Of a stretch of 64,000 nt of DNA, positions 7,812-61,216 are shown piece after piece; position 1 is the first letter of the stretch; each line of letters begins with the position of its first letter. Where the stretch lies: the NCBI RefSeq assembly GCF_027925145.1, contig NZ_AP027130.1, positions 248,001-312,000 of the forward strand, read 5' to 3'. Below the pieces are notes generated by a model. That model had not been told where the DNA came from and made no database searches. It saw only the letters and a program-made list of their open reading frames with translations. Position numbers and translations under genes: made by a program. Source of the DNA: Thermodesulfomicrobium sp. WS. GTDB taxonomy: Bacteria > Desulfobacterota > Desulfovibrionia > Desulfovibrionales > Desulfomicrobiaceae.

Positions 7812-8921
7812 TTACTCGTTGGCCGGTTGGGGCTGGAGTTCGAAAGGAAGGCCAAAGGACGGAGTCACCACCACCGGCTGACCGGAGCGCAGACGAAACA
7901 CGCCACTCGACACCACGACGTCTCCTGCTTCAAGCCCCGAATGCACCGCCACAAAATCGCCCCGCCGCTCTCCCAAGCGCACGAACACCTGCCGGGCCAC
8001 CGCTTTTTGGGTGGCGTTGTCCACCACGAACACCGAATCGCCGTAGGGGGCGGTGAGCACCGCCGTGGCTGGGATGGCGAGGACCGTGCGGCTTTCCTCT
8101 TGGCGCACCGCCACGCGCACAAACATGCCTGGACGCAAAGCCCCGGCCACGCCATCCAGCCGGCCCAGAGCGCGCACCATGCGGGTGGCAGGATCGGCCT
8201 GGGGCTCAATGCTCTGCACCCGCCCCGTGCGGCGCTCGCCGCTGGCCTCCACCTCCACCGGCAGGCCCACGGAGAGCCTTGCTGCCTGCTCCTGCGGCAC
8301 GGAAAACTCCACCTGCACCGGCTCCAGCTGCTGGATGTCCACGATGGCATCCCCCGCAGCCAAGCTCTGGCCAAGGCTCACCCGCCGGATTCCAAGCACC
8401 CCGTCAAAGGGTGCCCGGATGGTCTTTTTGGCCACCAAGGCCGCCAAAGCCTCAGCCTGGGCCCGAGTTTGACGGGCCACCGCCTCCAAGCGGTCGAGCT
8501 CCGCCTGGGCGAGCACCGCTTCCGCCACCAGGCGACGGCCGCGGGCAAGCTCCAAGGCCGCCAAATCCGCCGCTGCCTGGGCTGCCTGGAGCTGCGCCCG
8601 TTCTTCGCGGGCGTCCTGCACCACGAGCACTTGACCAGCGCGCACCCGGTCGCCGGAATCAAACGCCAGGCGCTCCACCCGGCCAGGCACCTCGGCCCGC
8701 ACCGTCGTGCCCTGGAGGGCCGTCACCGTGCCCACGGCCTGCACCTCCTCAGGCCACGGCACCTCCTGGGCCAAGGCCACCGAAACCGAAGCCGGCGGCA
8801 TCTGCGCCTGCGCGCCTTGCTGCACCATGGCCTGAATTTGTGTCCATTTGACCCACGCCAAGGCGCCGAGCACCACAACGATGGCCGCCACAGCCCCGAC
8901 AATCGCTCTCCAATGCTGCAT
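7812..8921 (-). CDS. RND periplasmic adaptor (membrane fusion protein)
   Basis: This 369-residue adaptor links the RND pump to an outer-membrane channel. An N-terminal membrane anchor (about residues 7-25) is followed by a lipoyl half-motif ('VRAEVPGRVERLAFDSGDRV'), an Ala/Glu/Arg-rich coiled-coil hairpin (about 110-165), the second lipoyl half ('TIRAPFDGVLGIRRVSLGQ') and beta-barrel domains. The ATG at 8921 is preceded by GGGAGA at good spacing and places the hydrophobic anchor at the N-terminus; longer in-frame starts extend into non-conserved sequence. It is the first gene of the efflux operon. Upstream is a 508-base gap (8922-9429) holding a gene remnant and a dyad. Confidence 0.9.
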   Translation of the reverse strand: MQHWRAIVGAVAAIVVVLGALAWVKWTQIQAMVQQGAQAQMPPASVSVALAQEVPWPEEVQAVGTVTALQGTTVRAEVPGRVERLAFDSGDRVRAGQVLVVQDAREERAQLQAAQAAADLAALELARGRRLVAEAVLAQAELDRLEAVARQTRAQAEALAALVAKKTIRAPFDGVLGIRRVSLGQSLAAGDAIVDIQQLEPVQVEFSVPQEQAARLSVGLPVEVEASGERRTGRVQSIEPQADPATRMVRALGRLDGVAGALRPGMFVRVAVRQEESRTVLAIPATAVLTAPYGDSVFVVDNATQKAVARQVFVRLGERRGDFVAVHSGLEAGDVVVSSGVFRLRSGQPVVVTPSFGLPFELQPQPANE

Positions 8922-9077
8922 ATTCTCTCCCGAAAACGCGACCTGTCCGCGCGATGCGTCTCTCGTGCACTCCAGAAGCACTGCCTCCGCAGCCCCACTT
9001 CTTTGAAGGAGCATCGCCTTTCTGGCAAGTGCTCCAAGCAACCATCACCGGACAATGAAGCGCCAGTAGTTGGATTT

Positions 9078-9176
9078 CCCGTGCCCCGTGGGCACACGAA
9101 AAGCCCTTCCCCGTGGGGCTCCCGTGGAGTGCAAAAACTGCCCGCCGGCATCCAGTCCTTCGCCAAAGTCCACCGG
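9078..9176 (+). pseudogene. Eroded 5' remnant of an AAA/PD-(D/E)XK gene and its upstream region
   Basis: In the 508-base gap 8922-9429, bases 9078-9176 align with the start of copy 2 (about 49060-49170). The upstream match includes 'CCCGTGCCCCGTGGGCACAC' against 'CCCATGCCCCCGTGGGTACAC'. In the coding part one frame reads 'KLPAGIQSFAKVHR' against 'KLPIGIQTFAKIRQ' in copy 2. The start codon region is changed to GTGGAGTGC, a base is lost near the lysine run, and similarity fades after about 9176. No long open frame continues. It is best read as the stub of a fourth family member, decayed or mostly deleted. I see no other gene in the gap. Confidence 0.6.
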
Positions 9177-9352
9177 GGTTGGCACGGCGCTGTCCTTGTG
9201 CTTCGGACAACGACTTTCGCCTTGCCTCCCGAACCGTGAACCCTCCGGCCACTGCCTGCAGGGTCACAACAGTTCGCCGCGCTTCCTCTGCCTTCATGAA
9301 TACGTCACCCCGTGTCTGCATGGGATGCCCTTTCTCTTGTCCCAGCCAGGGT

Positions 9353-9367
9353 GACAATATCATTGTC
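9353..9367. promoter_or_regulatory. Perfect inverted repeat, possible operator
   Basis: GACAAT-ATC-ATTGTC is a perfect 6-bp dyad with a 3-base spacer in the non-coding gap between the divergent efflux operon and the receiver-GGDEF gene. Its size suits a small homodimeric repressor. No regulator gene is adjacent, so this is only a candidate. Confidence 0.25.
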
Positions 9368-9429
9368 CGGCAACACAATTCACGCAAAGTCCTTGGCAAA
9401 GACCGTCCCTTGAGCTAGGGGGCGATCGT

Positions 9430-10375
9430 ATGTTCCCGATCGTTACGCCGGTATCTTCGACGTCTCGGGTCGCCACGCTCCTGGTAGCCGACGACGAACC
9501 CGTCAACCTGCTCTTCATGCAGCAGATCTTTCAACGCGACTACCAGGTCCTCACCGCCACCACCGGCGAAGAGGCCCTGCGTCTCGCCGAGGAACACCTG
9601 CCGGAGCTCATCATCCTCGACGTACTCATGCCGGGGCTTTCCGGATATTGAAGTGTGCAAGCGTCTCAAGGCCAATCCCGCCACCCAGCATATTCCCATC
9701 ATCTTCGTCACGGCATTAGAAAGCGCGGAGGACGAAGAAACGGGTTTGGAACTCGGGGCCGTAGACTACCTCACCAAGCCGCTGCGGGCCGGAATCCTGC
9801 GGGCCCGGGTGCGCAACTTCCTCACTATGCTCCGGCAGCAGGAACTCTTGCAGGAGCTGGCCTTGCTCGATCCGCTCACGGAAATCCCCAACCGCCGCGC
9901 CCTGGACCGCACCCTGGAGCAGGAATGGGGGCGTTGCCAGCGCATCCACGAGCCCCTGTCGCTGGCCATGGTGGATATCGACCACTTCAAGTCCTTCAAC
10001 GACACCTACGGCCACGGCGCCGGCGACCGGGCCCTGCGTCAGGTGGCTCAAGCCTTGACCTCCGCCGCCAAGCGGCCGGGCGACCTCGTCGCCCGCTACG
10101 GCGGCGAGGAGTTCGTCATCCTGCTGCCGCACGCCTCCCGCAACGGGGCGCGCAAGCTCTGCCGCATGGTACGGCACCACATCGAAACCTTGGCCATCCC
10201 CCACCAAGGCTCCGACTTCGGCGTACTGACGGTCAGCATCGGCGGGGTGACCCTCTGGCCCCACCGCAACGGATCTCCTGCCGAAATCTTGCAGCGGGCC
10301 GACGCCCAGCTCTACCGGGCCAAAAACGCCGGCCGCAACCGTGTGTTTTGGGAAGAGGATACCGGCGAGCTCTAA
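9430..10375 (+). pseudogene. Response regulator-GGDEF diguanylate cyclase, frameshifted
   Basis: The first frame (9430-9651) encodes a receiver domain up to 'LIILDVLMPGLSGY' and then hits TGA. The rest (from 9650) continues in another frame as 'EVCKRLKANP', completing the receiver and running into a full GGDEF domain with the active motif 'RYGGEEFVILLP'. One extra T at 9648-9649 (GGATATTGAAG) explains the break: removing it gives the canonical 'GLSGYEVCKRL'. An intact protein would have about 314 residues and make cyclic di-GMP under phosphorylation control. Both parts look otherwise well conserved, so this is a recent lesion or a sequencing error. There is no slippery homopolymer to suggest programmed frameshifting. 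Confidence 0.8.
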
Positions 10376-10405
10376 ACCCGAGCGCCGCCTGGCCCAGAAA
10401 CACGA

Positions 10406-10425
10406 AAACCGCCTTGCGGCGGTTT
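10406..10425. terminator. Bidirectional intrinsic terminator
   Basis: AAACCGCC-TTGC-GGCGGTTT is a perfect 8-bp stem with a 4-base loop, flanked by A on one side and T on the other. It lies between the receiver-GGDEF gene (+) and the convergent tRNA-Ala (-) and can serve both. Confidence 0.7.
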
Positions 10426-10469
10426 GCGTGCGGCATTCAAGGGAGTTTTGAAAACGTCGCTGGTTTGGG

Positions 10470-10545
<76 letters not shown>

Positions 10546-10653
10546 ACGCGACGTGCGAAGGCGCTTTTGGAGAAAAGCACGCCCGTTGTCAACACCTAAT
10601 TTTCGCTTTTTCCCTGCTGGCGAGAACCCGGCGCCCCTGCTACACCGCCCGCC

Positions 10654-12138
10654 ATGCAACGACCACCGCTTTCCGTCCACCTCCGCCAGGCCCAGGTGCG
10701 CCTCGCTGGACGCACCGTCCTGCGATCCATCGACTTCGATCTCACTTCCCACGCCTTCATCCACGGGGAAAACGGGGCCGGCAAGACCACGCTCCTGCGT
10801 CTGCTTGCCGCAGAGATCTGGCCCCAGGACCTCCCCGGCAGGCCGCCTGCACGCCTCTATTCCATCCACGGCCAGCGCTCGACATCTCCCCTGGCCGCCC
10901 GGCCCTGGATCCGTCTCATCACGCCACATCAGGCCGCCTGGTTCCAGGAACACCACCCACGCCTTCCCGTCCACGACCTTCTCGCCGCCGGGGCCATGGG
11001 AACACCGCTCCTCTACGGCCCTGTGCCGGAGGGCGTCCATGCAGACGTCGGTGTGGTGGCGGAAAAGCTTGCCCTCGCCCCGCTGCTCTCCCGGCCCATC
11101 CACACCCTCTCCAGCGGTGAGATGCAGCGCGCCCTCCTGGCCCGGGCCATCCTGGGCCGGCCGTCCCTCCTGTTGGTGGACGAATGGCAACTGGCCTTGG
11201 ACCCTCCAGGGATGCGCCTGGTTCGCCGCATCCTGGAAGCAGAAGCCGCCCAGGGCGCCTGTGTGGTCCTCACCTCCCACGCCGAGGACACACTCCCGGA
11301 CATCCCCATGCAGCATTGCACCATATGCCGCGGCGAGCTGCGGCCAACTCCGGCGGCCCCATTCCGTCCCCAACGGGGCCATCTGCCTGCACGGCCAACA
11401 CCTCCCCCAGGGCCGGTGCGCATCGCCATGCGCCAGGCTGCCGTCACGGCCGGGGGAAGCACCCTGCTTGAGCCCCTCTCCTGGCAGGGCAACGCCGGAG
11501 AGACCTGGGTGGTGGCGGGGAAAAACGGCGCCGGCAAGTCCACCTTTTTGCAGCTCGTCTCCGGTTGGCGGCATCCGGCGCCGGGCGGCGAAGTCCTGCG
11601 TCTGGAGCCGGCCCTGAGCGTGCTTCTGGCCAAAGAACGCATGGGCGTCCTGGCCCCCTGGCTCACCGGTGCCATGGAGCCCACGACCACCGTGCTTGAA
11701 GCCATCCTCTCCGGCTTTTCCGGATCCCTGGGCCGCCCGCGGCCCCTGCCCCCGGGGGCCCCTGCCGCGGCCCACACCCTGGCGCAGGCCTTCGGCATCG
11801 AGGCGTGGCTGCCGCTGCCGGTGGGGAGTCTCTCCCTGGGGCAGATGCGCCTGGTGCACCTGGCGCGCGCCGTAGTGCATCAGCCCTTGGTGCTGGTGCT
11901 CGACGAGCCCTTCGCGGGCCTGGACGCCCCCTGGCAGCACCGCCTGGCAGCGCTCCTTGCCACCCTGGCCACGGACGAGCGCCTCGTGGTGGTGGCCACC
12001 CACCACCCCCGCCACGTGGCGGCCATCGCCACCCATGCCATGGTGCTCGATGGCGGCCGCGTCTCGGCCATGGGCCCTTGGGTCGAAGTGACCAAGGGCC
12101 CCTCGTGGCGCCACCTCATGGGAGACGACCGCACATGA
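10654..12138 (+). CDS. Tandem ABC ATPase (ModF/PhrA-like)
   Basis: This 494-residue protein contains two ABC nucleotide-binding domains and no membrane segment. Domain 1 has Walker A 'GENGAGKTT' (about residue 38), signature 'LSSGEMQRA' and a Walker B ending in 'LLVDEW'. Domain 2 has 'GKNGAGKST' (about 290), 'LSLGQMRL' and 'LVLDEPFAGLD'. The split layout resembles ModF/photorepair-type tandem ATPases, whose roles are poorly defined. A linker of about 40 Pro/Arg-rich residues separates the domains. The stop overlaps the start of the next gene (ATGA), so they are translationally coupled. Confidence 0.8.
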   Translation: MQRPPLSVHLRQAQVRLAGRTVLRSIDFDLTSHAFIHGENGAGKTTLLRLLAAEIWPQDLPGRPPARLYSIHGQRSTSPLAARPWIRLITPHQAAWFQEHHPRLPVHDLLAAGAMGTPLLYGPVPEGVHADVGVVAEKLALAPLLSRPIHTLSSGEMQRALLARAILGRPSLLLVDEWQLALDPPGMRLVRRILEAEAAQGACVVLTSHAEDTLPDIPMQHCTICRGELRPTPAAPFRPQRGHLPARPTPPPGPVRIAMRQAAVTAGGSTLLEPLSWQGNAGETWVVAGKNGAGKSTFLQLVSGWRHPAPGGEVLRLEPALSVLLAKERMGVLAPWLTGAMEPTTTVLEAILSGFSGSLGRPRPLPPGAPAAAHTLAQAFGIEAWLPLPVGSLSLGQMRLVHLARAVVHQPLVLVLDEPFAGLDAPWQHRLAALLATLATDERLVVVATHHPRHVAAIATHAMVLDGGRVSAMGPWVEVTKGPSWRHLMGDDRT

Positions 12139-16105: not shown

Positions 16106-17023
16106 ATGGATACCACCGTCCATCTGCCAGGACTCACCCTCAAAAACCCCATCATCCCGGCATCGGGCACCTTCGGCTACGGCCTGGAGTTCGCCCGCTA
16201 CGGCGATTTGCGCCGCCTGGGGGCCATCTGCGTCAAGGGGCTCTCCCTGAAGCCCCGGGAAGGCAACCCTATGCCGCGCATCGCCGAGACCCCCTGCGGC
16301 ATGCTCAACAGCATCGGCCTGCAAAACGTGGGGGTGGAAGTCTTTTTGCAGCAAAAACTCCCCTTCCTGCCGCCGGAAGTGCCCATCATCGCCAACCTCT
16401 ACGCCCAAAGCCCGGAGGAATTCGCCGAACTCGCCGGCGTCCTGGGGGCGGAGGAACGCATCGCCGCCCTGGAAGTCAACGTCTCCTGCCCCAACGTACG
16501 CCGGGGCGGCGTGCAGTTCGGCCAAGACCCCGAGGCCCTGCAAACCGTGACCCGCGCCGTGGTGGCCGCGGCCCAGGGCAAGCCCGTCATCGTCAAGCTG
16601 AGCCCCAATGTGACGGACATCACGGCCATGGCCCGGGCCGCCGAGGCCGCAGGCGCCACCATGCTCTCGCTCATCAACACCCTCACCGGCATGGCCGTGG
16701 ACATCCGCACCCGCGCCCCGCGCCTGGCCACCGGTACCGGCGGCCTGTCCGGCCCGGCCATCAAGCCCGTGGCCCTGCGCATGGTCCACGCCGTCTGCCG
16801 GGCGGTCGATATCCCGGTCATCGGCATGGGCGGCATCGTGAGCGCCGAGGACGTGCTCGAGTTCATCCTGGTGGGCGCCAGCGCCGTGCAGGTGGGCACG
16901 GCATCGTTCATGCGCCCGGACCGGGTGTTCACCTTGGTGGACGAGGTCCAGGCCCTGGCGGAGACCCTGGGCATCGGCGCGTGGGAAGAATTCCGCGGCT
17001 GCCTCAAGGAGGTATCCCGATGA
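16106..17023 (+). CDS. pyrD: Dihydroorotate dehydrogenase B, catalytic subunit
   Basis: This 305-residue FMN enzyme oxidises dihydroorotate to orotate. The class 1B catalytic cysteine lies in 'NVSCPNVRRGG'. The FMN-binding features 'VKLSPNVTDI', 'GLSGPAIKPVALRMV' and 'IGMGGI' appear in order. Together with PyrK it makes the NAD-dependent form. Its stop overlaps the start of the small CxxC gene (ATGA), tying that gene to this operon. Confidence 0.95.
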   Translation: MDTTVHLPGLTLKNPIIPASGTFGYGLEFARYGDLRRLGAICVKGLSLKPREGNPMPRIAETPCGMLNSIGLQNVGVEVFLQQKLPFLPPEVPIIANLYAQSPEEFAELAGVLGAEERIAALEVNVSCPNVRRGGVQFGQDPEALQTVTRAVVAAAQGKPVIVKLSPNVTDITAMARAAEAAGATMLSLINTLTGMAVDIRTRAPRLATGTGGLSGPAIKPVALRMVHAVCRAVDIPVIGMGGIVSAEDVLEFILVGASAVQVGTASFMRPDRVFTLVDEVQALAETLGIGAWEEFRGCLKEVSR

Positions 17024-17246
17024 TCCGTCGCTTTTGCGATATCTGCGGAGTGGAGATCCAGGGGCTCACGGACGGCATCTTCGAGGAGCGCTACACCCTC
17101 ACCATCGCCGACCCCACCAACCTCGCCCGCCTCGGCGGCCAGAAGGGGGAACTGGCCCCAGCCTTGGAGATGCGCCTCACCGGGGTCCACAACACCGATA
17201 TCTGCCGCCGCTGCCTGAAAGACATCCTGATGCGCGAGTTCGAAAC
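17018..17246 (+). repeat. 229-bp direct repeat, left copy
   Basis: This stretch, from two bases before the ATG to 'GAGTTCGAAAC' near the 3' end of the CxxC gene, recurs at 20594-20822. I count two differences (CGT/CGC in the third codon, and G/T in 'AAGGGGGAA'/'AAGGGTGAA'), about 99% identity. Outside these limits both flanks diverge sharply. The copies are 3,576 bp apart in direct orientation. Confidence 0.95.
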
Positions 17247-17268
17247 ACGCGCCAAGGAGAAGACCTAA
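17020..17268 (+). CDS. Small CxxC...CxxC protein, copy A
   Basis: This 82-residue protein has the paired motifs 'CDIC' (residues 6-9) and 'CRRC' near residue 66, typical of a small zinc ribbon; the function is unknown. AAGGAGG sits upstream and the start overlaps the pyrD stop, so this copy is in the native operon setting. Bases 17018-17246 are repeated with two mismatches at 20594-20822. The two copies differ only at the C-terminus ('TRAKEKT' here). Confidence 0.8.
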   Translation: MIRRFCDICGVEIQGLTDGIFEERYTLTIADPTNLARLGGQKGELAPALEMRLTGVHNTDICRRCLKDILMREFETRAKEKT

Positions 17269-17395
17269 ACAGAGGCAACGTCGCAGCACGCAAGGTTCTC
17301 AACGACGAAGGGTTCGGCGTACCGAGGGGCATGCTGTTCTAGAGCTGGAGATGCAATTGGAATATTTTGGAGTATGGGACGTGCAAAGAGGAACT

Positions 17396-17812
17396 ATGCA
17401 GACGGATTATCTGGATGCACACGAGCGGCACAGGGAAGATGCCGAACTACTTTTTCAGACCCAACACTGGGCCAATGCCGACCATCTATACGGCATTGCG
17501 GCCGAATGCGGACTGAAGCGGTTAATGCTCGCCTTCGGTATGCCTTACGACACGTCGAATGACCGCCCCGCCATTGGATCAGATCGCAAACACGCTGATA
17601 TCCTCTGGGCGCGCTACGAAAGCTATCGCTGTGGCCATCACCTGGGGGCCGGTTATGCGCTGACCACACCCAATCCCTTTGACGATTGGGATGTGGGTCA
17701 ACGTTACGCCCATCGATCCAATTTCAATCGGGACCGTGTCGAAGCGCACCGATCGGGGGCAGAAGCAGTCGGTCAGTTGATCCAGAAAGCGCGCTGGGAG
17801 GGACTGATATAA
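17396..17812 (+). CDS. Predicted HEPN-like protein (island gene 1)
   Basis: This 138-residue protein is mostly helical. The N-terminal helices 'HREDAELLFQTQHWANADHL' and 'YGIAAECGLKRLM' resemble HEPN-fold proteins. Near the C-terminus 'RDRVEAH' fits the R-x(4-6)-H signature of HEPN ribonucleases (here R-x5-H). The start at 17396 has AGAGGA 5 bases upstream; an in-frame ATG at 17351 would add 15 residues but has a poorly spaced ribosome site. The ATG of gene 2 follows its TAA with no gap. It could act as a toxin-like RNase released by its ATPase partners, but that is inference from architecture. The fold call needs a profile search. Confidence 0.6.
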   Translation: MQTDYLDAHERHREDAELLFQTQHWANADHLYGIAAECGLKRLMLAFGMPYDTSNDRPAIGSDRKHADILWARYESYRCGHHLGAGYALTTPNPFDDWDVGQRYAHRSNFNRDRVEAHRSGAEAVGQLIQKARWEGLI

Positions 17813-19099
17813 ATGACGACCTTTGACCAAATTCTACCTGGTGCAGTAGAGGTCCTCAAAGCGCACCGCCAATCCATAGCGCACTTGGGATGGCTGGCCA
17901 TCAACCGTGACCTCAACGGGCGGGTGCGGTTGATCGCGCCGGAAGAGGCCGAACGCAACGAAGCAACGCGTCAAACGCTCGAAACGCTCTATCGCGCCCT
18001 TGCCGAGCGCATCGCCCCGCATGCCTATCCCGTTGCCTCGGGCATCTTGTTCGAGGCGAACCGCGAAGCGGTGTGCATGGGGACAAGCCATTTTGAGATG
18101 GAAGGCCTTAATCATATTTGGGTGATCGATCGTCTGGCCACAGAAGGCAATTGGGCAAAGATCGCCCCTGAATCCCCAGGTGCGCCGCGCGTCGTCTTCT
18201 TCTCCATCAAGGGTGGGGTGGGTCGCTCGACGGCGCTCGCGGCGATTGCCTGGAGCCTGGCACAACAAGACCGCACGGTACTCGTGATCGATATAGATCT
18301 CGAATCACCCGGGCTGTCGAATGCGGTGTTGACCCCTGATCGGCTGCCGCCCTTTGGCGTCACCGACTGGCTGGTAGAGGATCTTGTCGACAACGGTGAA
18401 ACGGTTCTCCCTGATCTCTATGCAGAGGCGGGTTTCAATACCCCTGCGCCGCTTTTCGTCGTCCCTGCACACGGCGCGAACCCCGGCGAATACATCGCCA
18501 AACTCGGCCGGGTCTGGATGCCGAAGATCGGCAAGGCAGGCGCGCACGAACCTTGGTCAGCACGGCTATGCCGCCTTTTGGACGCGCTTGAAAACACGTT
18601 ACGACCCGATGTGATCCTGATCGACTCGCGTGCTGGGATTGACGAGGTAGCCTCGGCGTGCGTCACCGATCTGGGCGCGGCGGCGGTTTTGCTGTTTGCG
18701 ATTGCTGGGCGACAAACGTGGTCCGGATACCGCGTCCTGTTCGACCATTGGCAACGTTGGGGGAGCGTTCACGACATTCGCCAACGGCTGCAATTGGTCG
18801 CGGGGCTCGTGCCCGACGATGCGGGGCGGGCCGCCTATCTGGAGCAACTCAGGGAGGATGCCTGGGAGCTCTTTTCCGCCATCTACGACGAAGTCGGCCC
18901 GGATGATTCCGAGGGCTGGAACTTCGCACCGGAAAACGAGACGGCGCCGCACTATCCGCTCGCCATTCGGTGGAATCGCGGCTGGTTTGGATTACCGAGC
19001 CTCCACCAGCGTCGTGGCGATGCCGATGATGTTCGTGCCGTGTTTGGTCCGCTGTTGGACCATATCGAACGCCTCCTCGTTCGGGAGACTATGGCATGA
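17813..19099 (+). CDS. KGGVGR-type ParA/MinD-like ATPase (island gene 2)
   Basis: This 428-residue protein has an N-terminal domain of about 125 residues that I cannot assign, followed by a deviant-Walker ATPase. It has 'FFSIKGGVGRSTALAAIAW' (about residues 128-146), then 'VLVIDIDLESPGLS' (switch I-like) and 'DVILIDSRAGIDEVA'. Arg replaces the usual Lys-Thr context of ParA 'KGGVGKTT', the variant I recall being named KGGVGR-motif ATPase in protein family databases. The C-terminal 100 residues are specific to this type. It abuts gene 1 and overlaps gene 3 (ATGA), so the three are stoichiometrically linked. Most likely a regulatory or sensor ATPase in a conflict system. Confidence 0.75.
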   Translation: MTTFDQILPGAVEVLKAHRQSIAHLGWLAINRDLNGRVRLIAPEEAERNEATRQTLETLYRALAERIAPHAYPVASGILFEANREAVCMGTSHFEMEGLNHIWVIDRLATEGNWAKIAPESPGAPRVVFFSIKGGVGRSTALAAIAWSLAQQDRTVLVIDIDLESPGLSNAVLTPDRLPPFGVTDWLVEDLVDNGETVLPDLYAEAGFNTPAPLFVVPAHGANPGEYIAKLGRVWMPKIGKAGAHEPWSARLCRLLDALENTLRPDVILIDSRAGIDEVASACVTDLGAAAVLLFAIAGRQTWSGYRVLFDHWQRWGSVHDIRQRLQLVAGLVPDDAGRAAYLEQLREDAWELFSAIYDEVGPDDSEGWNFAPENETAPHYPLAIRWNRGWFGLPSLHQRRGDADDVRAVFGPLLDHIERLLVRETMA

Positions 19100-20529
19100 C
19101 GATATCCGTTCACGAGATCAGAGCAGCGATCAGCGCTGTGCCGTTCGAAAACGATCAGCGTGAGGCCCCGCGCGCCGAGATCCTGTACCTCCCTCGGGCA
19201 CATCGCAAGGCACTCGGCAGAGAATCAGTCCTGGTCGTCGGCGCGCGGGGGGTTGGCAAGTCCTTTTGGACCGCCGCACTGCGAGATGAACAACTCCGGT
19301 CATTGATCGGAAGACAGGAGCCTGCTCTGGCGCAAACCAGAATCGCTGTCGGCTATGCAGCGACCCCAAACAACAAGGATTTCCCAGACAAAGACATACT
19401 CGCCAGCCTTCTCGACAAAGGTTTCAAGCCGTATGCGATCTGGCGTGCCGTCATCTTTTGTCATCTGGCGCGCTGGCTTGGCGAAAATGCGATTCCTGAA
19501 ACCTGGGTTGAGCGGGTGCGGTACGTCGTCGATGACCCTGAAGGGGTTGCCTGCGTTGCGGAAGCGGCAGACCGTCAATTTCTGGAAAACGGGCAGTATG
19601 GACTGATCCTCTTCGATGCGCTTGACCGTGTTTCGGACGACTGGCAAAGCATGGATCAGATCGTTTCGGCGCTCCTGCGTGCCTCCTTGTGGGTGCGTGG
19701 ATTCAAGCGTCTGCGCACCAAGGTTTTTGTCCGTCCCGACCAAATCGAGCGTGAGGTAACGGCTTTTCCTGACGCGTCGAAGCTGCTCGCCACCCGGGTC
19801 GAGCTTACCTGGGAGCGGCACGATCTGCATGCGATGCTCTGGCAAAGATTGATCAATGTACCGGGGGAGGATGGGGAGGCATTGCGTGCCATCGTGCGGA
19901 CCTTGCTCCCTAATGGCTTAAATTTCCATGCAGAAAATGGCGTCTGGCGATTGCCCGTCGAGTTGCAGAGCGAAACCGCTTTGCGCCGGCTTTTCGAAAA
20001 GCTGGCGGGTGACAAGATGGGCAAAGACGCCCGTCGCGGCGTTCCTTATGTCTGGAGTGTGAGCCACCTGGCCGACGGGCATGGCCAAACCTCCCCCCGC
20101 TCGTTCCTCGCCGCCATCAAAAGTGCGGCGGACGATAGTCTTGCCCGTTATCCCGACCACCCTCTCGCGCTTCATTACGAAAGCATCAAACGTGGCATCC
20201 AATCGGCCTCCCGCATCCGGGTCGATGAGATTGCCGAGGATTACCCGTGGATCCGGGATGTGCTCGCCCCGCTGAGAGGGCAGAGTGTGCCTTGTGAATT
20301 CGCAAACATACTCAATCTTTGGTCCGAGCGTTATCCTGATGGGCCCGGAATGCTGAGCGGCCAGGGTATGTTGCCTGCGCATGCCGAACAAGGTTGGGAG
20401 GGCGTGCGGGAAGACTTGCAGCGGATCGGCGTCTTCACCATGCGTCAAGATGGGCGGATTGATATGCCGGACCTGTATCGGGTCGGATTTGGGCTTGGAC
20501 GCCGTGGAGGTGTCAAACCGAATCGTTGA
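19096..20529 (+). CDS. P-loop (AAA/STAND-like) ATPase (island gene 3)
   Basis: This 477-residue protein has Walker A 'VVGARGVGKSFWTAAL' (about residues 50-65) and a Walker B-like strand 'GLILFDALDRV' (about 172). The downstream motifs 'RTKVFVRPDQIE' and 'FPDASKLLATRVELTW' suit a STAND/KAP-like sensor ATPase. The C-terminus (about 390-470) looks like a winged-helix module ending in 'GRIDMPDLYRVGFGLGRRGG'. It overlaps gene 2 by ATGA. After its stop there are only 66 bases to the second CxxC copy. No nuclease, protease or TIR domain is visible, so the effector is more likely gene 1. Confidence 0.7.
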   Translation: MTISVHEIRAAISAVPFENDQREAPRAEILYLPRAHRKALGRESVLVVGARGVGKSFWTAALRDEQLRSLIGRQEPALAQTRIAVGYAATPNNKDFPDKDILASLLDKGFKPYAIWRAVIFCHLARWLGENAIPETWVERVRYVVDDPEGVACVAEAADRQFLENGQYGLILFDALDRVSDDWQSMDQIVSALLRASLWVRGFKRLRTKVFVRPDQIEREVTAFPDASKLLATRVELTWERHDLHAMLWQRLINVPGEDGEALRAIVRTLLPNGLNFHAENGVWRLPVELQSETALRRLFEKLAGDKMGKDARRGVPYVWSVSHLADGHGQTSPRSFLAAIKSAADDSLARYPDHPLALHYESIKRGIQSASRIRVDEIAEDYPWIRDVLAPLRGQSVPCEFANILNLWSERYPDGPGMLSGQGMLPAHAEQGWEGVREDLQRIGVFTMRQDGRIDMPDLYRVGFGLGRRGGVKPNR

Positions 20530-20593
20530 GCCACAACGAGAAGCATGCACCGGCTCTCACCGAAAAGTTGATAGCAGCTTTTTGTTGATCCCT

Positions 20594-20822
20594 CGATGAT
20601 CCGCCGCTTTTGCGATATCTGCGGAGTGGAGATCCAGGGGCTCACGGACGGCATCTTCGAGGAGCGCTACACCCTCACCATCGCCGACCCCACCAACCTC
20701 GCCCGCCTCGGCGGCCAGAAGGGTGAACTGGCCCCAGCCTTGGAGATGCGCCTCACCGGGGTCCACAACACCGATATCTGCCGCCGCTGCCTGAAAGACA
20801 TCCTGATGCGCGAGTTCGAAAC
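20594..20822 (+). repeat. 229-bp direct repeat, right copy
   Basis: Right-hand copy of the repeat at 17018-17246, with two mismatches. It begins two bases before the ATG of CxxC copy B and ends 28 bases before its stop. The sequence before it (20530-20593) is unlike the pyrD tail that precedes the left copy, apart from a short ATCCC. Confidence 0.95.
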
Positions 20823-20850
20823 GCAGAGCCCGAAGACCAGTTCAGACTAA
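20596..20850 (+). CDS. Small CxxC...CxxC protein, copy B
   Basis: This 84-residue protein is identical to copy A through residue 76 and then ends 'QSPKTSSD'. Both CxxC pairs are intact. Unlike copy A it has no clear ribosome site (upstream TTTTTGTTGATCCCTCG), so it may be silent or read through from the island operon 66 bases upstream. The very low divergence, with one of the two differences synonymous in the third codon, indicates a recent duplication or ongoing gene conversion. Confidence 0.6.
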   Translation: MIRRFCDICGVEIQGLTDGIFEERYTLTIADPTNLARLGGQKGELAPALEMRLTGVHNTDICRRCLKDILMREFETQSPKTSSD

Positions 20851-21345: not shown

Positions 21346-25347
<4,002 letters not shown>

Positions 25348-53342: not shown

Positions 53343-54152
53343 ATGCCTGCGGCCATCAACGACCTCGTCACCCGCCTGCTGGAAGCCGCCAGTGTCGCCC
53401 CCTCGCCGGGGACGCCGCCGGAATTCGACATCCTGGAAATGCCTCTGGAAGGGGTGGCCGCCTTTTGGCTCTCCGTGAAAAAGACCCTGGAGAGCAAGCG
53501 GCGGGAGGGGTTCCTGGCCGAGGAGGCCCGGCATACCAAGGAGCCGTACATCCGCTACCTGCTGGAGTTGGCGGCCTCGTCCTTTTCCCCGGCCGAGGCC
53601 AAAGAGCTGGCAGGCATCCGCGCCGCCACCATCCTCGAAGACCTGGGGCGCAAGTATACGCTCATGAGTATCGCCCTGTTGGGCATGGTGGCCAACGAAA
53701 ACCCGCAAAAGGTCATGGTGCGGTTTTTGTCCAAGTTCCACATGCCACCCATCTTCGAGCGCCAGGTGTTCGAGGTGGCGGACCTCATGCTCCAGCACCT
53801 GGGAGACCCAGGATTCAACAAAAAAAAGTTCCTGCGCATCGACCACAAACAAAAGATCGAATCCCTCATCATCAACCTCATCTTCTACTGTAAGCTCGCG
53901 CGCAAAAGCGGAGTGGCGGCGGTACTCGAACAGCGCGAGTACCTGGCCTCTCCCTACTTCAAAGACGGCCTGGAGCTGGTGGCTGACGGCTTTGACGCGG
54001 ATTTTATCAAATATCGTCTGAACCTCGTGAAGCGGGAAATCCTCGCGGCCACGGAGCGCAAAATGGCCCTGTCCGCAGCCATGATGGCCGCCATCAAGGC
54101 CGGCGTGCCCTATGCCGACCTCTACCTGCTGGCCAAGGCGTACTTGGGATAG
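53343..54152 (+). CDS. Conserved helical protein of unknown function
   Basis: I do not recognise this 269-residue protein. It is largely helical and charged, with 'VKKTLESKRREGFLAEEARH' near residue 45 and a C-terminal Ala-rich helix 'ERKMALSAAMMAAIKAG'. No membrane segment or catalytic motif is clear. It starts 1 base after cheX, so a link to chemotaxis or motility is possible but not shown. Confidence 0.65.
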   Translation: MPAAINDLVTRLLEAASVAPSPGTPPEFDILEMPLEGVAAFWLSVKKTLESKRREGFLAEEARHTKEPYIRYLLELAASSFSPAEAKELAGIRAATILEDLGRKYTLMSIALLGMVANENPQKVMVRFLSKFHMPPIFERQVFEVADLMLQHLGDPGFNKKKFLRIDHKQKIESLIINLIFYCKLARKSGVAAVLEQREYLASPYFKDGLELVADGFDADFIKYRLNLVKREILAATERKMALSAAMMAAIKAGVPYADLYLLAKAYLG

Positions 54153-54177
54153 AATATACCTCATTGATATAAAAATG

Positions 54178-54244
54178 TTTTTACAAAAAAATAAAAATAC
54201 ACTTTGATTCTCGCTATAACAATCAAGCTTTTTTTACAAAAAAA
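54178..54244. repeat. Repeated A/T tracts upstream of amt 2
   Basis: TTTTTACAAAAAAA occurs at 54178-54191 and 54231-54244, 53 bp apart (about five helical turns), inside a very AT-rich 208-base gap. Phased tracts like these bend DNA or bind IHF-like proteins, which would suit an enhancer-dependent promoter. Confidence 0.5.
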
Positions 54245-54300
54245 GAACAAATGCTTTGACTGCTGTCTTTTTATCAAAATATTTCAAAGATTTTTCTCTT

Positions 54301-54316
54301 CGGTACAGCCTCTGCA
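54301..54316 (+). promoter_or_regulatory. Candidate sigma-54 promoter of amt 2
   Basis: CGGTACAGCCTCTGCA has GG and GC exactly 10 bases apart; the -24 half CGGTAC differs from TGGCAC at two positions and the -12 half CTGCA at one. It lies about 45 bases before the ATG, after the AT-rich bend-prone stretch. Confidence 0.4.
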
Positions 54317-54360
54317 TCTTGCCCCACGTACCGTAACCTGCAACGTGTGGAGGCTTGTGT

Positions 54361-55728
54361 ATGTTCGCATATTCCATCTGTTGGCCGCGGCGGGCCATGC
54401 TCGCCGGCCTTGTGGTCCTGGGGACCCCGGCTTTGGCCCTGGCGGAAGCGCCAGAATTTTTCACCCAATCCAGCGCCAACCTGCTGTGGACCTTGATCGC
54501 CGCCATCCTGGTCATGTTCATGCAGGCCGGGTTCGCCATGGTGGAGGCGGGCTTTACCCGCGCCAAGAACGCCGGCAATATCATCATGAAGAACCTCCTG
54601 GACTTTGCCGCCGGCTCGCCGGCCTATTTTCTCGTGGGCTTTGCCTTGATGTTCGGCGCCGACGCCGCAGGCGTCTTCGGTACGTCCGGCTTTGCCCTGG
54701 CAGGCCTTGATACCACCACGCCGGAGGGCCAATGGGGGCTGACCTTCTGGTTCTTCCAATCGGTATTTGCCGCCACCAGCGCCACCATCGTCTCCGGCGC
54801 CCTGGCCGAGCGCACCCAGTTTCGCACCTATATTGTCTCCAGTCTCGTCATCTCGGCCCTCATCTATCCCATCTCCGGGCATTGGGCCTGGGGCAATCTC
54901 TGGCTTGGGGACGAAGGTGCGGGCTGGCTCGCCCAAATGGGGTTCATCGATTTTGCTGGTTCTTCCGTGGTACACTCACTGGGCGGCTGGATCGCCCTGG
55001 CCGGTGCCCTCGTCCTGGGCCCGCGCATCGGCAAATACGGCCCGGACGGTAAGGCGCGGGCCATTCCCGGGCATAGCATCCCCTTGGCAGGGCTTGGGGT
55101 CTTCATCCTCTGGTTCGGCTGGTTCGGGTTCAATCCCGGCAGCACCACCGCGGCCACGGGCGACATCGGCTTCATCGCCGTCACCACGAGCCTGGCAGCC
55201 TGCGCCGGCACCCTGGGCGCCATGATCATGGCCTGGATGCGCTTCGGCAAGCCTGATACCTCCATGACCCTCAACGGCACCCTGGCGGGGCTGGTGGCCA
55301 TCACCGCCGGCTGCGCCGAGGTCTCGCCCATGGGCGCCCTTGCCATCGGCGCCATTGCGGGACTGGTGGTGGTGCCCAGCATCGAGTTTATCGACAAGAC
55401 CCTGAAGATCGACGACCCGGTGGGCGCATCCTCAGTACACGGCCTGTGCGGCACGCTCGGGACCATCCTCGTGGGCTTCTTTGCCGCCCCGGGATTCGGT
55501 TCGAACACGGGACTACTCTACGGCGGCGGTGCAGGACTCCTGCTCACCCAAATCACCGGCGCCCTGGCCATTGCGGCCTGGGGCTTTGGCTGCGGCTTTA
55601 TCCTCTTCAAGGTCCTGGACGCCCTCATGGGCCTGCGGGTCAGCGCGGAAGAGGAACTCAAAGGTCTCGATATCACCGAGCACGGCATGGAAGGCTACAA
55701 CGGCTTCCAAATCTTCGCCAACGAATAG
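54361..55728 (+). CDS. amt: Ammonium transporter (Amt 2) with signal peptide
   Basis: This 455-residue transporter begins with a cleavable signal (to about residue 25, 'GTPALALAEA') and has about 11 TM segments with 'AGFAMVEAGFTRAKNAGNI', 'GHWAWG' and 'SVHGLCGTLGTILVG'. It differs clearly from Amt 1 (21346) in N-terminus and sequence, so it is not a recent duplicate. The C-terminus 'ELKGLDITEHGMEGY' is the PII-contact tail. GGAGG lies 7 bases before the ATG at 54361; a GTG 6 bases earlier is in frame. PII 2 follows after 9 bases. Confidence 0.94.
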   Translation: MFAYSICWPRRAMLAGLVVLGTPALALAEAPEFFTQSSANLLWTLIAAILVMFMQAGFAMVEAGFTRAKNAGNIIMKNLLDFAAGSPAYFLVGFALMFGADAAGVFGTSGFALAGLDTTTPEGQWGLTFWFFQSVFAATSATIVSGALAERTQFRTYIVSSLVISALIYPISGHWAWGNLWLGDEGAGWLAQMGFIDFAGSSVVHSLGGWIALAGALVLGPRIGKYGPDGKARAIPGHSIPLAGLGVFILWFGWFGFNPGSTTAATGDIGFIAVTTSLAACAGTLGAMIMAWMRFGKPDTSMTLNGTLAGLVAITAGCAEVSPMGALAIGAIAGLVVVPSIEFIDKTLKIDDPVGASSVHGLCGTLGTILVGFFAAPGFGSNTGLLYGGGAGLLLTQITGALAIAAWGFGCGFILFKVLDALMGLRVSAEEELKGLDITEHGMEGYNGFQIFANE

Positions 55729-59314: not shown

Positions 59315-61216
59315 TTACGACACCACGCTTCCCGGCGGCACCGGACTTGTGGGGGAAAGCAGGGCAAGGCCGTCTTTGGTCTTCACCGCCAAGATCATCC
59401 CTTGGGACACTTGCCCGCGCAGCTTGCGCGGCTTGAGGTTGGCCACGAACACCACCTGGCGGCCGAGCAAATCGGCGGGTTTCCAGCTCTCGGCAATGCC
59501 GGCCACCACCTGCCGGGGCTCGGTGCCGCCGTCGTCCAGGCGCACCAAGAGCAGACGGTCCGCCTGAGGATGGGGCAGGGCCTCCACCACGGTGCCCACA
59601 CGCAGGTCCAATTGGCTGAAGACCTCGAAGTCCACGGCTTCCTTGGTGGGGGCTGCGGTCTTGGGCTCAGGCTTGGGCGCTGCAACCACCTCCTTGCGCG
59701 GGAAGAGGTTGGAGCTCGCCGCCACCGGGGTGCCGGGCTGCAGCCCAAACCACGACGAAGTCTCGCCTTCCAGGTCCACGGCGGCAAGATCCCATTTCCA
59801 TCCCAGCTGCTCCAGCATGGCCTCGGAGAGCGACGGCATCACCGGCCACAGGTGCAAGGCCACCTTCCGCATCCCCTCCAGCACCACATAGAGCACAGTA
59901 TTCAATCGGATGGTTTCACCCGCCTTGAACAGGGCCCAGGGCGCGCTTTTGTCGATGTATTTGTTGAGGTGCCGCACCAGCTCCCACAAGGAGGCCACGG
60001 CCCGAGAAAAATGGAAGTGCTGGAACTGGCCCTGGAAGTTGGCCAGGGCATTATGACCGATGCTCAGCACCTCGCGGTCCAGTTCGGTGAGTTCCCCACA
60101 CTCGGGCACCCGGCCCCCACAGTACTTGTGGGTCATGGTCAGGGTGCGGGAAAAAAGATTCCCGAGGTCATTGGCCAGGTCGGCGTTGAAGCGCTGCACC
60201 AGCGCCTCCTCGGTGAACGAAGCGTCCTGGCCGAAACTCATCTCCGCCAAAAGGAAGTAGCGGAAGGCCGCCACCCCATAGCGCTGGGCCATATCCAAGG
60301 GCGCCACCACGTTGCCAAGGCTCTTGGACATCTTGGTCTCGCCCACGGTCCAGTAGCCATGCACCCGCAAGCCTTTGTAGAGCGGCAGGCCCGCAGCCAT
60401 CAGCATGGTCGGCCAGAAGATGGCGTGCGGTTTGAGGATGTCCTTGGCCACGATATGGTGGGCGCCGGACCAGAACTTCCGGAAACGATCGTCCCCGGGA
60501 TACCCCAGGGCGGAGATGTAGTTGATGAGGGCATCAAACCACACGTAGGTGACAAAGTCCGTGTCAAAGGGGAGATCGATCCCCCAAGTGAGCCGCGTCT
60601 TGGGGCGGGAGATGCACAAATCACCGAGATCCTCGCGCAGCATGGCAAGGACTTCGTTGCGATAGCGCTCAGGCTGGATGAATTCGGGATGCTCTTCGAT
60701 ATGGCGCCGGAGCGCATCGAGATACCGTGACATGCGGAAAAAGTAGTTTTTTTCCTTGATGCGTGTGGGCTCTACCTGGTGGTCGGGGCATTTGCCATCC
60801 ACCAGCTCCTTTTCGGTATAGAAGCGCTCACAGCCATAGCAATACAGGCCTTCATACTCCGCAAAATAGATGTCACCACTGTCGTACACCTTTTGGAGCA
60901 CATACTGCACACACGCTTTGTGGCGTTCCATGGTGGTGCGGATGAAGTCGTCGTTCTCGATTTCGAGATGCGGCCATAACTCCTGAAAACTACTACTAAT
61001 ATCATCCACATAGCGCTGCACGTCCATCTGGGCCTTTTGGGCCGCCTGGACGATCTTGTCGCCATGCTCATCGGTGCCGGTGAGGAAAAACACGGTATCG
61101 CCGGCCAGCTTATGGAAGCGGGCGATGCTGTCGGCCACAATGGTCGAGTAGGCATGCCCCAAATGGGGCCGGGCGTTGACGTAGTAAATGGGAGTGGAGA
61201 CAAAGAAGTATTTCAC
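59315..61216 (-). CDS. metG: Methionyl-tRNA synthetase
   Basis: This 633-residue enzyme charges tRNA-Met. It has the HIGH-like 'HLGH' (about residue 18), zinc-binding 'CYGC...CPDH', 'KMSKS' (about 297), and a C-terminal EMAPII/Arc1p-type tRNA-binding domain (about 530-633, 'FEVFSQLDLRVGTVVEALPHP'). The start is GTG at 61216, overlapping the stop of the RicT-like gene; no ATG lies nearby. It is the last gene of a leftward operon ended by the hairpin at 59253. Confidence 0.95.
   Translation of the reverse strand: MKYFFVSTPIYYVNARPHLGHAYSTIVADSIARFHKLAGDTVFFLTGTDEHGDKIVQAAQKAQMDVQRYVDDISSSFQELWPHLEIENDDFIRTTMERHKACVQYVLQKVYDSGDIYFAEYEGLYCYGCERFYTEKELVDGKCPDHQVEPTRIKEKNYFFRMSRYLDALRRHIEEHPEFIQPERYRNEVLAMLREDLGDLCISRPKTRLTWGIDLPFDTDFVTYVWFDALINYISALGYPGDDRFRKFWSGAHHIVAKDILKPHAIFWPTMLMAAGLPLYKGLRVHGYWTVGETKMSKSLGNVVAPLDMAQRYGVAAFRYFLLAEMSFGQDASFTEEALVQRFNADLANDLGNLFSRTLTMTHKYCGGRVPECGELTELDREVLSIGHNALANFQGQFQHFHFSRAVASLWELVRHLNKYIDKSAPWALFKAGETIRLNTVLYVVLEGMRKVALHLWPVMPSLSEAMLEQLGWKWDLAAVDLEGETSSWFGLQPGTPVAASSNLFPRKEVVAAPKPEPKTAAPTKEAVDFEVFSQLDLRVGTVVEALPHPQADRLLLVRLDDGGTEPRQVVAGIAESWKPADLLGRQVVFVANLKPRKLRGQVSQGMILAVKTKDGLALLSPTSPVPPGSVVS

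What the first reader, a model, noticed from the sequence alone, without database searches (positions are those of the whole stretch)
17018..20850. Three-gene HEPN-like/KGGVGR ATPase/P-loop ATPase system in an island
Three coupled genes (stop-start abutment, then ATGA overlap) encode a small protein with an R-x5-H HEPN-like motif, a ParA/MinD-like ATPase with the KGGVGR variant and an unknown N-terminal domain, and a STAND/KAP-like ATPase with a C-terminal winged-helix-like part. The block is less GC-rich than the host and interrupts a housekeeping operon. The pattern (candidate RNase effector plus two NTPases, compact and transferred) is that of a conflict system. I know of KGGVGR ATPases as a named family but not of a characterised system with this trio.
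Basis: partly seen in the sequence, partly recalled or inferred. Interest (0 to 1): 0.9.

Follow-up and report, generated by a model that had tools for sequence, protein, structure and literature searches.

The report
Three-gene phage-defence candidate (PDC-M28)
This is a mobile three-gene cassette that bacteria very probably use against viruses; it is already listed in a defence database as an untested candidate (PDC-M28), and here its parts are resolved into a small AbiV-type HEPN protein run by two different ATPases, one of them built like the core ATPase of BREX immunity.

Summary
The three coupled genes are real (A 17396-17812, B 17813-19099, C 19096-20529) and match all three parts of PADLOC's candidate system PDC-M28 (E 3e-54, 1e-168, 9e-190). 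The trio is therefore not unknown, although no full text in the 5.39 million papers searched mentions PDC-M28. The conserved residues (E52, K56, H81, R118-Y119) match the AbiV/AF0298 variant of HEPN. B is a KGGVGR ATPase with an unassigned N-terminal domain. C is an ORC/Cdc6-type ATPase, closest by fold to archaeal ORC2 and to BrxC of BREX. A-B-C stay in this order in 31 loci across several phyla. B and C co-occur in 5 of 395 genomes (C alone once, B alone never) and are fused in two genomes. Five loci lie inside BREX-2 and two next to PLD-helicase systems; others stand alone or on plasmids beside integrases. The window's copy was acquired horizontally and sits between two 99%-identical copies of a small host gene. 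Most likely it is an abortive defence module with a HEPN effector gated by two NTPases; phage protection is untested.

The parts
17020..17268 (+). Left copy of the small host gene (82 aa, two CxxC motifs) downstream of and overlapping pyrD; left edge of the duplication
   Evidence: Direct repeat of 229 nt, 99% identical to the right copy; single copy in most family members
17247..20593 (.). Inserted segment between the repeats, GC 0.588
   Evidence: no integrase or transposase recognised among the ORFs inside (my reading)
17396..17812 (+). Gene A (138 aa): HEPN-fold protein of AbiV/HEPN-T type, PDC-M28A. Numbering used here is from the upstream ATG 17351 (P0001, 153 aa)
   Evidence: PADLOC PDLC04558 3.1e-54; homologues hit Pfam HEPN_AbiV and HEPN; AlphaFold2 pLDDT 88.5; Foldseek top hits are HEPN structures
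17813..19099 (+). Gene B (428 aa): unassigned N-terminal domain (about 1-115) plus KGGVGR variant MinD/ParA-type ATPase, PDC-M28B
   Evidence: NCBIfam NF047398 186.8 bits, cut-off 90; PADLOC PDLC04559 1.3e-168; invariant residues from alignment A4
19096..20529 (+). Gene C (477 aa): ORC/Cdc6-type AAA+ ATPase (Walker A GARGVGKS, Walker B LILFDALD) with a C-terminal part of winged-helix-like secondary structure, PDC-M28C
   Evidence: PADLOC PDLC04561 9.2e-190; NCBIfam NF047389 79.1 bits, cut-off 75; AlphaFold2 pLDDT 91.4; Foldseek ORC2 3.6e-6, BrxC 4.0e-6
20596..20850 (+). Right copy of the small host gene (84 aa)

Best explanation
The trio is a horizontally transferred anti-phage (abortive-infection type) system, a new instance of the catalogued candidate PDC-M28. 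Proposed mechanism: C, an ORC/Cdc6-like ATPase related in fold to BrxC, assembles on DNA (probably invading DNA) through its C-terminal part in an ATP-dependent way. B, a KGGVGR nucleotide switch, couples that state to A. A, an AbiV/HEPN-T-type HEPN protein, is the toxic output that cleaves or blocks RNA and stops translation, held inactive by B and C until infection. Shown here: the folds of A and C (predicted), the families of B and C, strict gene order and coupling, natural B-C fusions, co-occurrence, horizontal transfer, and location inside BREX-2 and beside PLD-helicase genes. Inferred: the direction of signalling, DNA sensing, toxicity, RNA as target, and phage protection.
For: All three proteins match PDC-M28 models. 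A-B-C order in 31 independent loci with gaps of 13 nt or less. Full-length B and C co-occur in 5 of 395 genomes, C alone 1, B alone 0, Fisher p 8e-11. B and C are fused in one 974-aa and one 922-aa protein. Trio inside BREX-2 in L071, L073, L077, L039 and L040 and beside a PLD helicase in L055 and L028, in L055 with the DUF1156 methylase on the other side. HEPN: homologues hit PF18728 and PF05168, and the top six Foldseek hits are HEPN-family structures. E52, H81 and R118 are conserved as described for AbiV and AF0298 in PMC3710099. C resembles ORC2 and BrxC. Transfer: C groups with gammaproteobacterial and Nitrospirota sequences at 100/100, apart from the same-family copy.
Against: No experiment shows defence. 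A lacks the canonical Rx4-6H, so RNase activity is doubtful. Foldseek E-values for A are weak (0.1-0.4), the HEPN call resting on match probabilities of 0.75-0.99 and on Pfam hits of relatives only; P0001 itself hits no Pfam model. No phage record carries B. Many copies, including the window's, stand next to housekeeping genes, not in defence islands. B's N-terminal domain has invariant polar residues and could be the true effector.
Confidence: 0.55

Rival explanations
1. A is a non-catalytic HEPN adaptor or RNA/DNA-binding subunit; the effector is B (its N-terminal domain with invariant N31-R32-D33, R37, R39, E81, D106-R107) or the B-C complex acting directly on DNA.
For: No Rx4-6H in A; the N-terminal domain of B is highly conserved with many invariant polar residues and no known family; B and C fuse to each other, A to neither in the loci examined.
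Against: A keeps the E, H and R set proposed as an alternative HEPN active site; HEPN proteins lacking the motif are still toxic according to PMC3710099.
Confidence: 0.25
2. A toxin-antitoxin type addiction or maintenance module of mobile DNA (HEPN toxin, ParA-like antitoxin, as proposed for the MAE_18760 HEPN-ParA dyad), with no dedicated phage sensing.
For: Precedent of a HEPN + ParA/Soj dyad predicted as a TA pair (PMC3710099); several copies on plasmids next to integrases.
Against: A third, ORC/BrxC-like ATPase is kept in nearly all loci; repeated nesting inside BREX-2 and next to PLD helicases; A lacks the conserved Rx4-6H of the MAE_18760 kind.
Confidence: 0.12
3. An accessory of BREX and related restriction systems that regulates or backs them up, with no defence of its own.
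For: Five loci inside BREX-2 and two beside a PLD helicase; C has a BrxC-like fold.
Against: Most copies, including the window's, are not in such systems; the window's trio sits alone between two copies of a host gene.
Confidence: 0.12
4. A housekeeping operon.
For: Sits next to pyrD and amt.
Against: Full-length C in 6 of 395 genomes of the phylum; absent from the congener G002; low GC; tree disagrees with taxonomy.
Confidence: 0.02

Closest known systems
PDC-M28 (PADLOC-DB phage defence candidate, multi-gene)
   Same: All three genes match its A, B and C models over nearly full length; same three-gene make-up
   Different: Nothing structural; this is a new instance. PADLOC lists it as a candidate only, and no paper text found names it
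MAE_18760 HEPN + ParA/Soj ATPase dyad (PMC3710099)
   Same: HEPN gene coupled to a ParA-type ATPase gene
   Different: Two genes only, HEPN of another family with canonical Rx4-6H, no ORC/Cdc6-type ATPase
AbiV (lactococcal abortive infection HEPN)
   Same: Same Pfam family hit by 10 of 26 homologues of A; same variant residues (R kept, motif H absent, second H between helices 2 and 3)
   Different: A is a 138-residue protein coupled to two ATPases; sequence similarity is weak (best E 4e-4)
BREX, BrxC ATPase
   Same: C shares the ORC/Cdc6-type ATPase fold and is sometimes encoded inside BREX-2
   Different: C is 477 aa against about 1200-1300 for BrxC; no PglZ or methyltransferase in the trio
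MNT-HEPN toxin-antitoxin systems
   Same: A small HEPN protein with a coupled nucleotide-binding partner
   Different: No MNT; two P-loop ATPases in its place

Membership tests
PDC-M28 (PADLOC) | A, B and C proteins matching PDLC04558/59/61 | tested here: met
   E 3.1e-54, 1.3e-168, 9.2e-190, near full-length
PDC-M28 (PADLOC) | Adjacent genes in the order A-B-C | tested here: met
   Window and 30 further loci
PDC-M28 (PADLOC) | Protection against phage | not testable with these tools
   Needs an experiment
HEPN superfamily | HEPN helical fold | tested here: met
   AlphaFold2 pLDDT 88.5, pTM 0.82; Foldseek ranks 1-6 are HEPN-family structures, probability 0.75-0.99, but E 0.1-0.4
HEPN superfamily | Sequence match to HEPN profiles | tested here: inconclusive
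   No hit for P0001 itself; homologues hit PF18728 in 10 and PF05168 in 5 of 26, best 4.9e-5
Canonical HEPN RNase | Conserved Rx4-6H motif | tested here: not met
   R127-x5-H133 in 2 of 26 homologues; some R-x4-6-H expected by chance in 91% of shuffles
AbiV / AF0298-type HEPN | R of the motif kept, motif H absent, second conserved H between helices 2 and 3, acidic residue in helix 2 | tested here: met
   R118 26/26, H81 25/26 just before helix 82-94, E52 26/26 in helix 40-61; definition from PMC3710099. Spatial closeness of the residues was not measured
KGGVGR-motif variant AAA ATPase (NF047398) | Score above curated cut-off and KGGVGR motif | tested here: met
   186.8 bits against 90; motif invariant in 21 of 21
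Sll1717 P-loop ATPase (NF047389) | Score above curated cut-off | tested here: met
   79.1 against 75, marginal; some relatives of C fall below
ORC/Cdc6-type AAA+ ATPase | Fold similarity | tested here: met
   ORC2 1w5s 3.6e-6, BrxC 9zdx 4.0e-6, Cdc6/Orc1 2qby 7e-5
BREX | PglZ and PglX/BrxX genes in the locus | tested here: not met
   Only three genes lie between the two copies of the host gene
MAE_18760 HEPN-ParA dyad | HEPN of the MAE_18760 family with Rx4-6H | tested here: not met
   Motif absent; Pfam hits are AbiV and PF05168

The most novel reading that the evidence does not exclude
A distinct immune architecture: an AbiV-type HEPN effector, using the alternative His-Arg-Glu site, governed by two unlike NTPases in series (a KGGVGR switch with a new sensor or effector domain, and a stripped-down BrxC/ORC-like DNA-bound ATPase). 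It would work alone and also serve as a plug-in second line inside BREX-2 and related systems.
Probability: 0.4. Interest if true: 0.65.

Novelty: new member of a known kind. Interest (0 to 1): 0.42.

Why it matters
PDC-M28 is a database entry for which I found no described mechanism. This work gives it a residue-level, testable model (A: E52, K56, H81, R118; B: K133, R138 and the NRD...R N-terminal set; C: K55, D174/D177). It links AbiV-type HEPN proteins to an ATPase of the BrxC kind, and points to stand-alone copies in which the trio can be tested without BREX. If A is active, it would test the 2013 prediction that HEPN proteins without Rx4-6H use an alternative histidine.

Tried and rejected
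Canonical HEPN RNase motif in A: rejected, not conserved. Housekeeping role: rejected, patchy distribution. Phage-borne copies of B: none in 50,697 phage records. DNA-level relatives in E. coli genomes: none. PDB sequence relatives of A by phmmer or profile: only chance hits. PDB sequence match for the B N-terminal domain: none. Integrase or transposase inside the insert: none recognised among its ORFs; the 229-nt repeats look too long for a site-specific attachment core, and the only tRNA in the window is at 10470, so tRNA/att integration was not supported. G002 as a clean empty site: rejected, its right flank differs. Literature for PDC-M28, KGGVGR, Sll1717: no paper text. Sigma-70 promoter scan: no + strand site upstream of A.
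Full report
1. What is there. Between the gene pyrD (16106-17023; named from my own reading of its sequence) and amt (ATG at 21346; likewise) lies a segment with three coupled genes, flanked on both sides by a copy of a small host gene. The ORFs are A 17396-17812, B 17813-19099 and C 19096-20529; A's stop abuts B's start, and B and C overlap by ATGA. I place A's start at 17396, not 17351. The extra 15 residues are disordered in the model, the PADLOC model and the sister-species gene begin at M16, and an AGAGGA precedes the ATG. Residue numbers for A below follow the longer form (P0001).

2. The flanking repeat. 229 nt around and including the small gene (82/84 aa, two CxxC pairs) occur at 17018-17246 and 20594-20822, with two mismatches over the 227 nt from the start codon. 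In the sister species G001 the trio (84% identical in B) is in the same place, again between two copies. The two G001 copies are 99.1% identical to each other but 94.2% to the window's right copy, so the repeats appear to be homogenised within each genome. The congener G002 has one copy and no trio, but its right flank differs, so it is not a perfect empty site. No integrase was recognised among the ORFs of the insert. How the duplication arose is not explained here; excision by recombination between the repeats is possible but not shown.

3. Acquisition. The insert has GC 0.588 against 0.643 for the window, and GC3 of 0.59-0.68 against 0.80-0.90 for three neighbouring genes. In a tree of C the window's protein groups at 100/100 with a Competibacteraceae and a Nitrospirota MAG, away from the same-family copy in G007 and the same-order copy in G347. 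This is best read as horizontal transfer.

4. Identity. PADLOC-DB models for PDC-M28A, B and C match the three proteins at 3.1e-54, 1.3e-168 and 9.2e-190. PDC stands for phage defence candidate (usage in PMC11514479). No text in the library names PDC-M28. The trio is thus a new instance of a catalogued candidate for which I found no description.

5. The trio stays together. In 31 independent loci (chromosomes, MAGs and plasmids of several proteobacterial lineages, Thermodesulfobacteriota, Nitrospirota, Chlorobiota, Actinomycetota and Cyanobacteriota) A, B and C follow one another with gaps of 13 nt or less, mostly 4-nt overlaps. In one sample of 395 genomes of the phylum, strong full-length matches (E below 1e-100) to B occur in 5 and to C in 6, with 5 shared (Fisher p 8e-11; the p-value ignores relatedness, but the genomes are of different families). 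The odd genome, G402, holds an in-frame fusion of a B remnant to C that looks like a deletion. Two genomes (L065, L068) fuse B and C in one protein, and L068 has an A-like gene upstream. Pseudomonas lopnurensis has two trios in opposite directions (L038). Exceptions: S. alboflavus has C only (L079), and L041 has a truncated B.

6. Context. Five copies lie inside BREX-2 loci: Sphaerotilus L071, Thiodictyon L073, Streptomyces L077, Rubrivivax L039 and a Burkholderiales MAG L040. In L055 the trio lies between a DUF1156 methylase and a PLD-domain helicase, with DarG further upstream, and in L028 it is followed by the same helicase. PMC12839542 describes related DUF499-centred systems with DUF1156-type methylases, and HKD-type helicases in one subtype. 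On plasmids it is found next to tyrosine recombinases or integrases in Enterobacter, Paraburkholderia and Agrobacterium, in Enterobacter also beside a TIR-domain gene. Other copies, like the window's, stand beside housekeeping genes.

7. Protein A. AlphaFold2 gives a confident helical model (pLDDT 88.5, pTM 0.82). The six best PDB matches are HEPN-family structures (2q00, 1ufb, 1wol, 2hsb, 4nqf, 1o3u; probability 0.75-0.99, E 0.1-0.4; for 1ufb the HEPN assignment is from my own knowledge, for 2q00 from PMC3710099). Homologues hit Pfam HEPN_AbiV (10 of 26) and HEPN (5 of 26), and the annotators of two records call A a HEPN protein, but the window's own protein hits no Pfam model. Invariant or nearly so are E52, C53, K56 (helix 2), H81, W113, R118 and Y119. 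PMC3710099 describes this pattern for AbiV and AF0298 (2hsb): the R is kept, the motif H is absent, a second H lies between helices 2 and 3, and an acidic residue is in helix 2; its authors propose an alternative active site and note that HEPN proteins without the motif are still toxic.

8. Protein B. The KGGVGR ATPase domain matches NF047398 well above cut-off. In KGGVGRST the signature lysine K133 is kept and the usual P-loop lysine is R138; DxDLESPG and LIDSRAGI are conserved (reading of the motifs from established knowledge of the MinD/ParA family). The first 115 residues form a conserved domain with invariant N31, R32, D33, R37, R39, E81, D106 and R107 (among 16 closer relatives) and no match in Pfam or PDB sequences.

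9. Protein C. A confident model (pLDDT 91.4) matches archaeal ORC2 (3.6e-6), BrxC of BREX (4.0e-6) and Cdc6/Orc1 (7e-5). Walker A (G49, G52, G54, K55) and Walker B (D174, D177) are invariant. By sequence it just passes NF047389 (Sll1717 family). Distant members of that family weakly match DS41_1, named 'anti-phage protein' in NCBIfam; DS-41 is one of the validated systems of the DefensePredictor paper (PMC13092281). That link is weak, and that the two names mean the same system is my inference.

10. Mechanism. Best reading: C senses or loads on DNA, B is a nucleotide switch, A is the toxic output. The predicted folds, the order, the B-C fusions and the defence context are shown; sensing, gating and toxicity are inferred. 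The main rival is that A is a binding subunit and B's N-terminal domain is the effector.

11. Verdict. It is a new member of a catalogued candidate whose mechanism is open.

Noticed in passing
window 17018-17246 and 20594-20822; L061, L062: The small CxxC gene is duplicated around the trio in two species, and the copies are more alike within each genome (99%) than between genomes (94%): gene conversion or repeated exchange across a 3.3-kb insert.
   Followed up: partly
L065:6792-9716, L068:6853-9621: KGGVGR ATPase and Sll1717-type ATPase fused in one protein (974 and 922 aa), the latter with an A-like gene upstream.
   Followed up: partly
L038:3556-6769 and 8268-11430: Pseudomonas lopnurensis carries two divergent PDC-M28 trios facing each other.
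   Followed up: no
L058:2452-3876: B remnant fused in frame to C, as if by deletion (or an assembly error); no A found.
   Followed up: no
L087, L089, L090 (G101, G264, G065): KGGVGR domains in larger open frames (589-1091 aa) with no strong C match in the same genomes; unexamined.
   Followed up: no
window 17813-18157: N-terminal domain of B: no known family, many invariant polar residues.
   Followed up: partly
window 54001-55000 and 60001-61000: GC dips to 0.557 and 0.574, other possible foreign segments.
   Followed up: no
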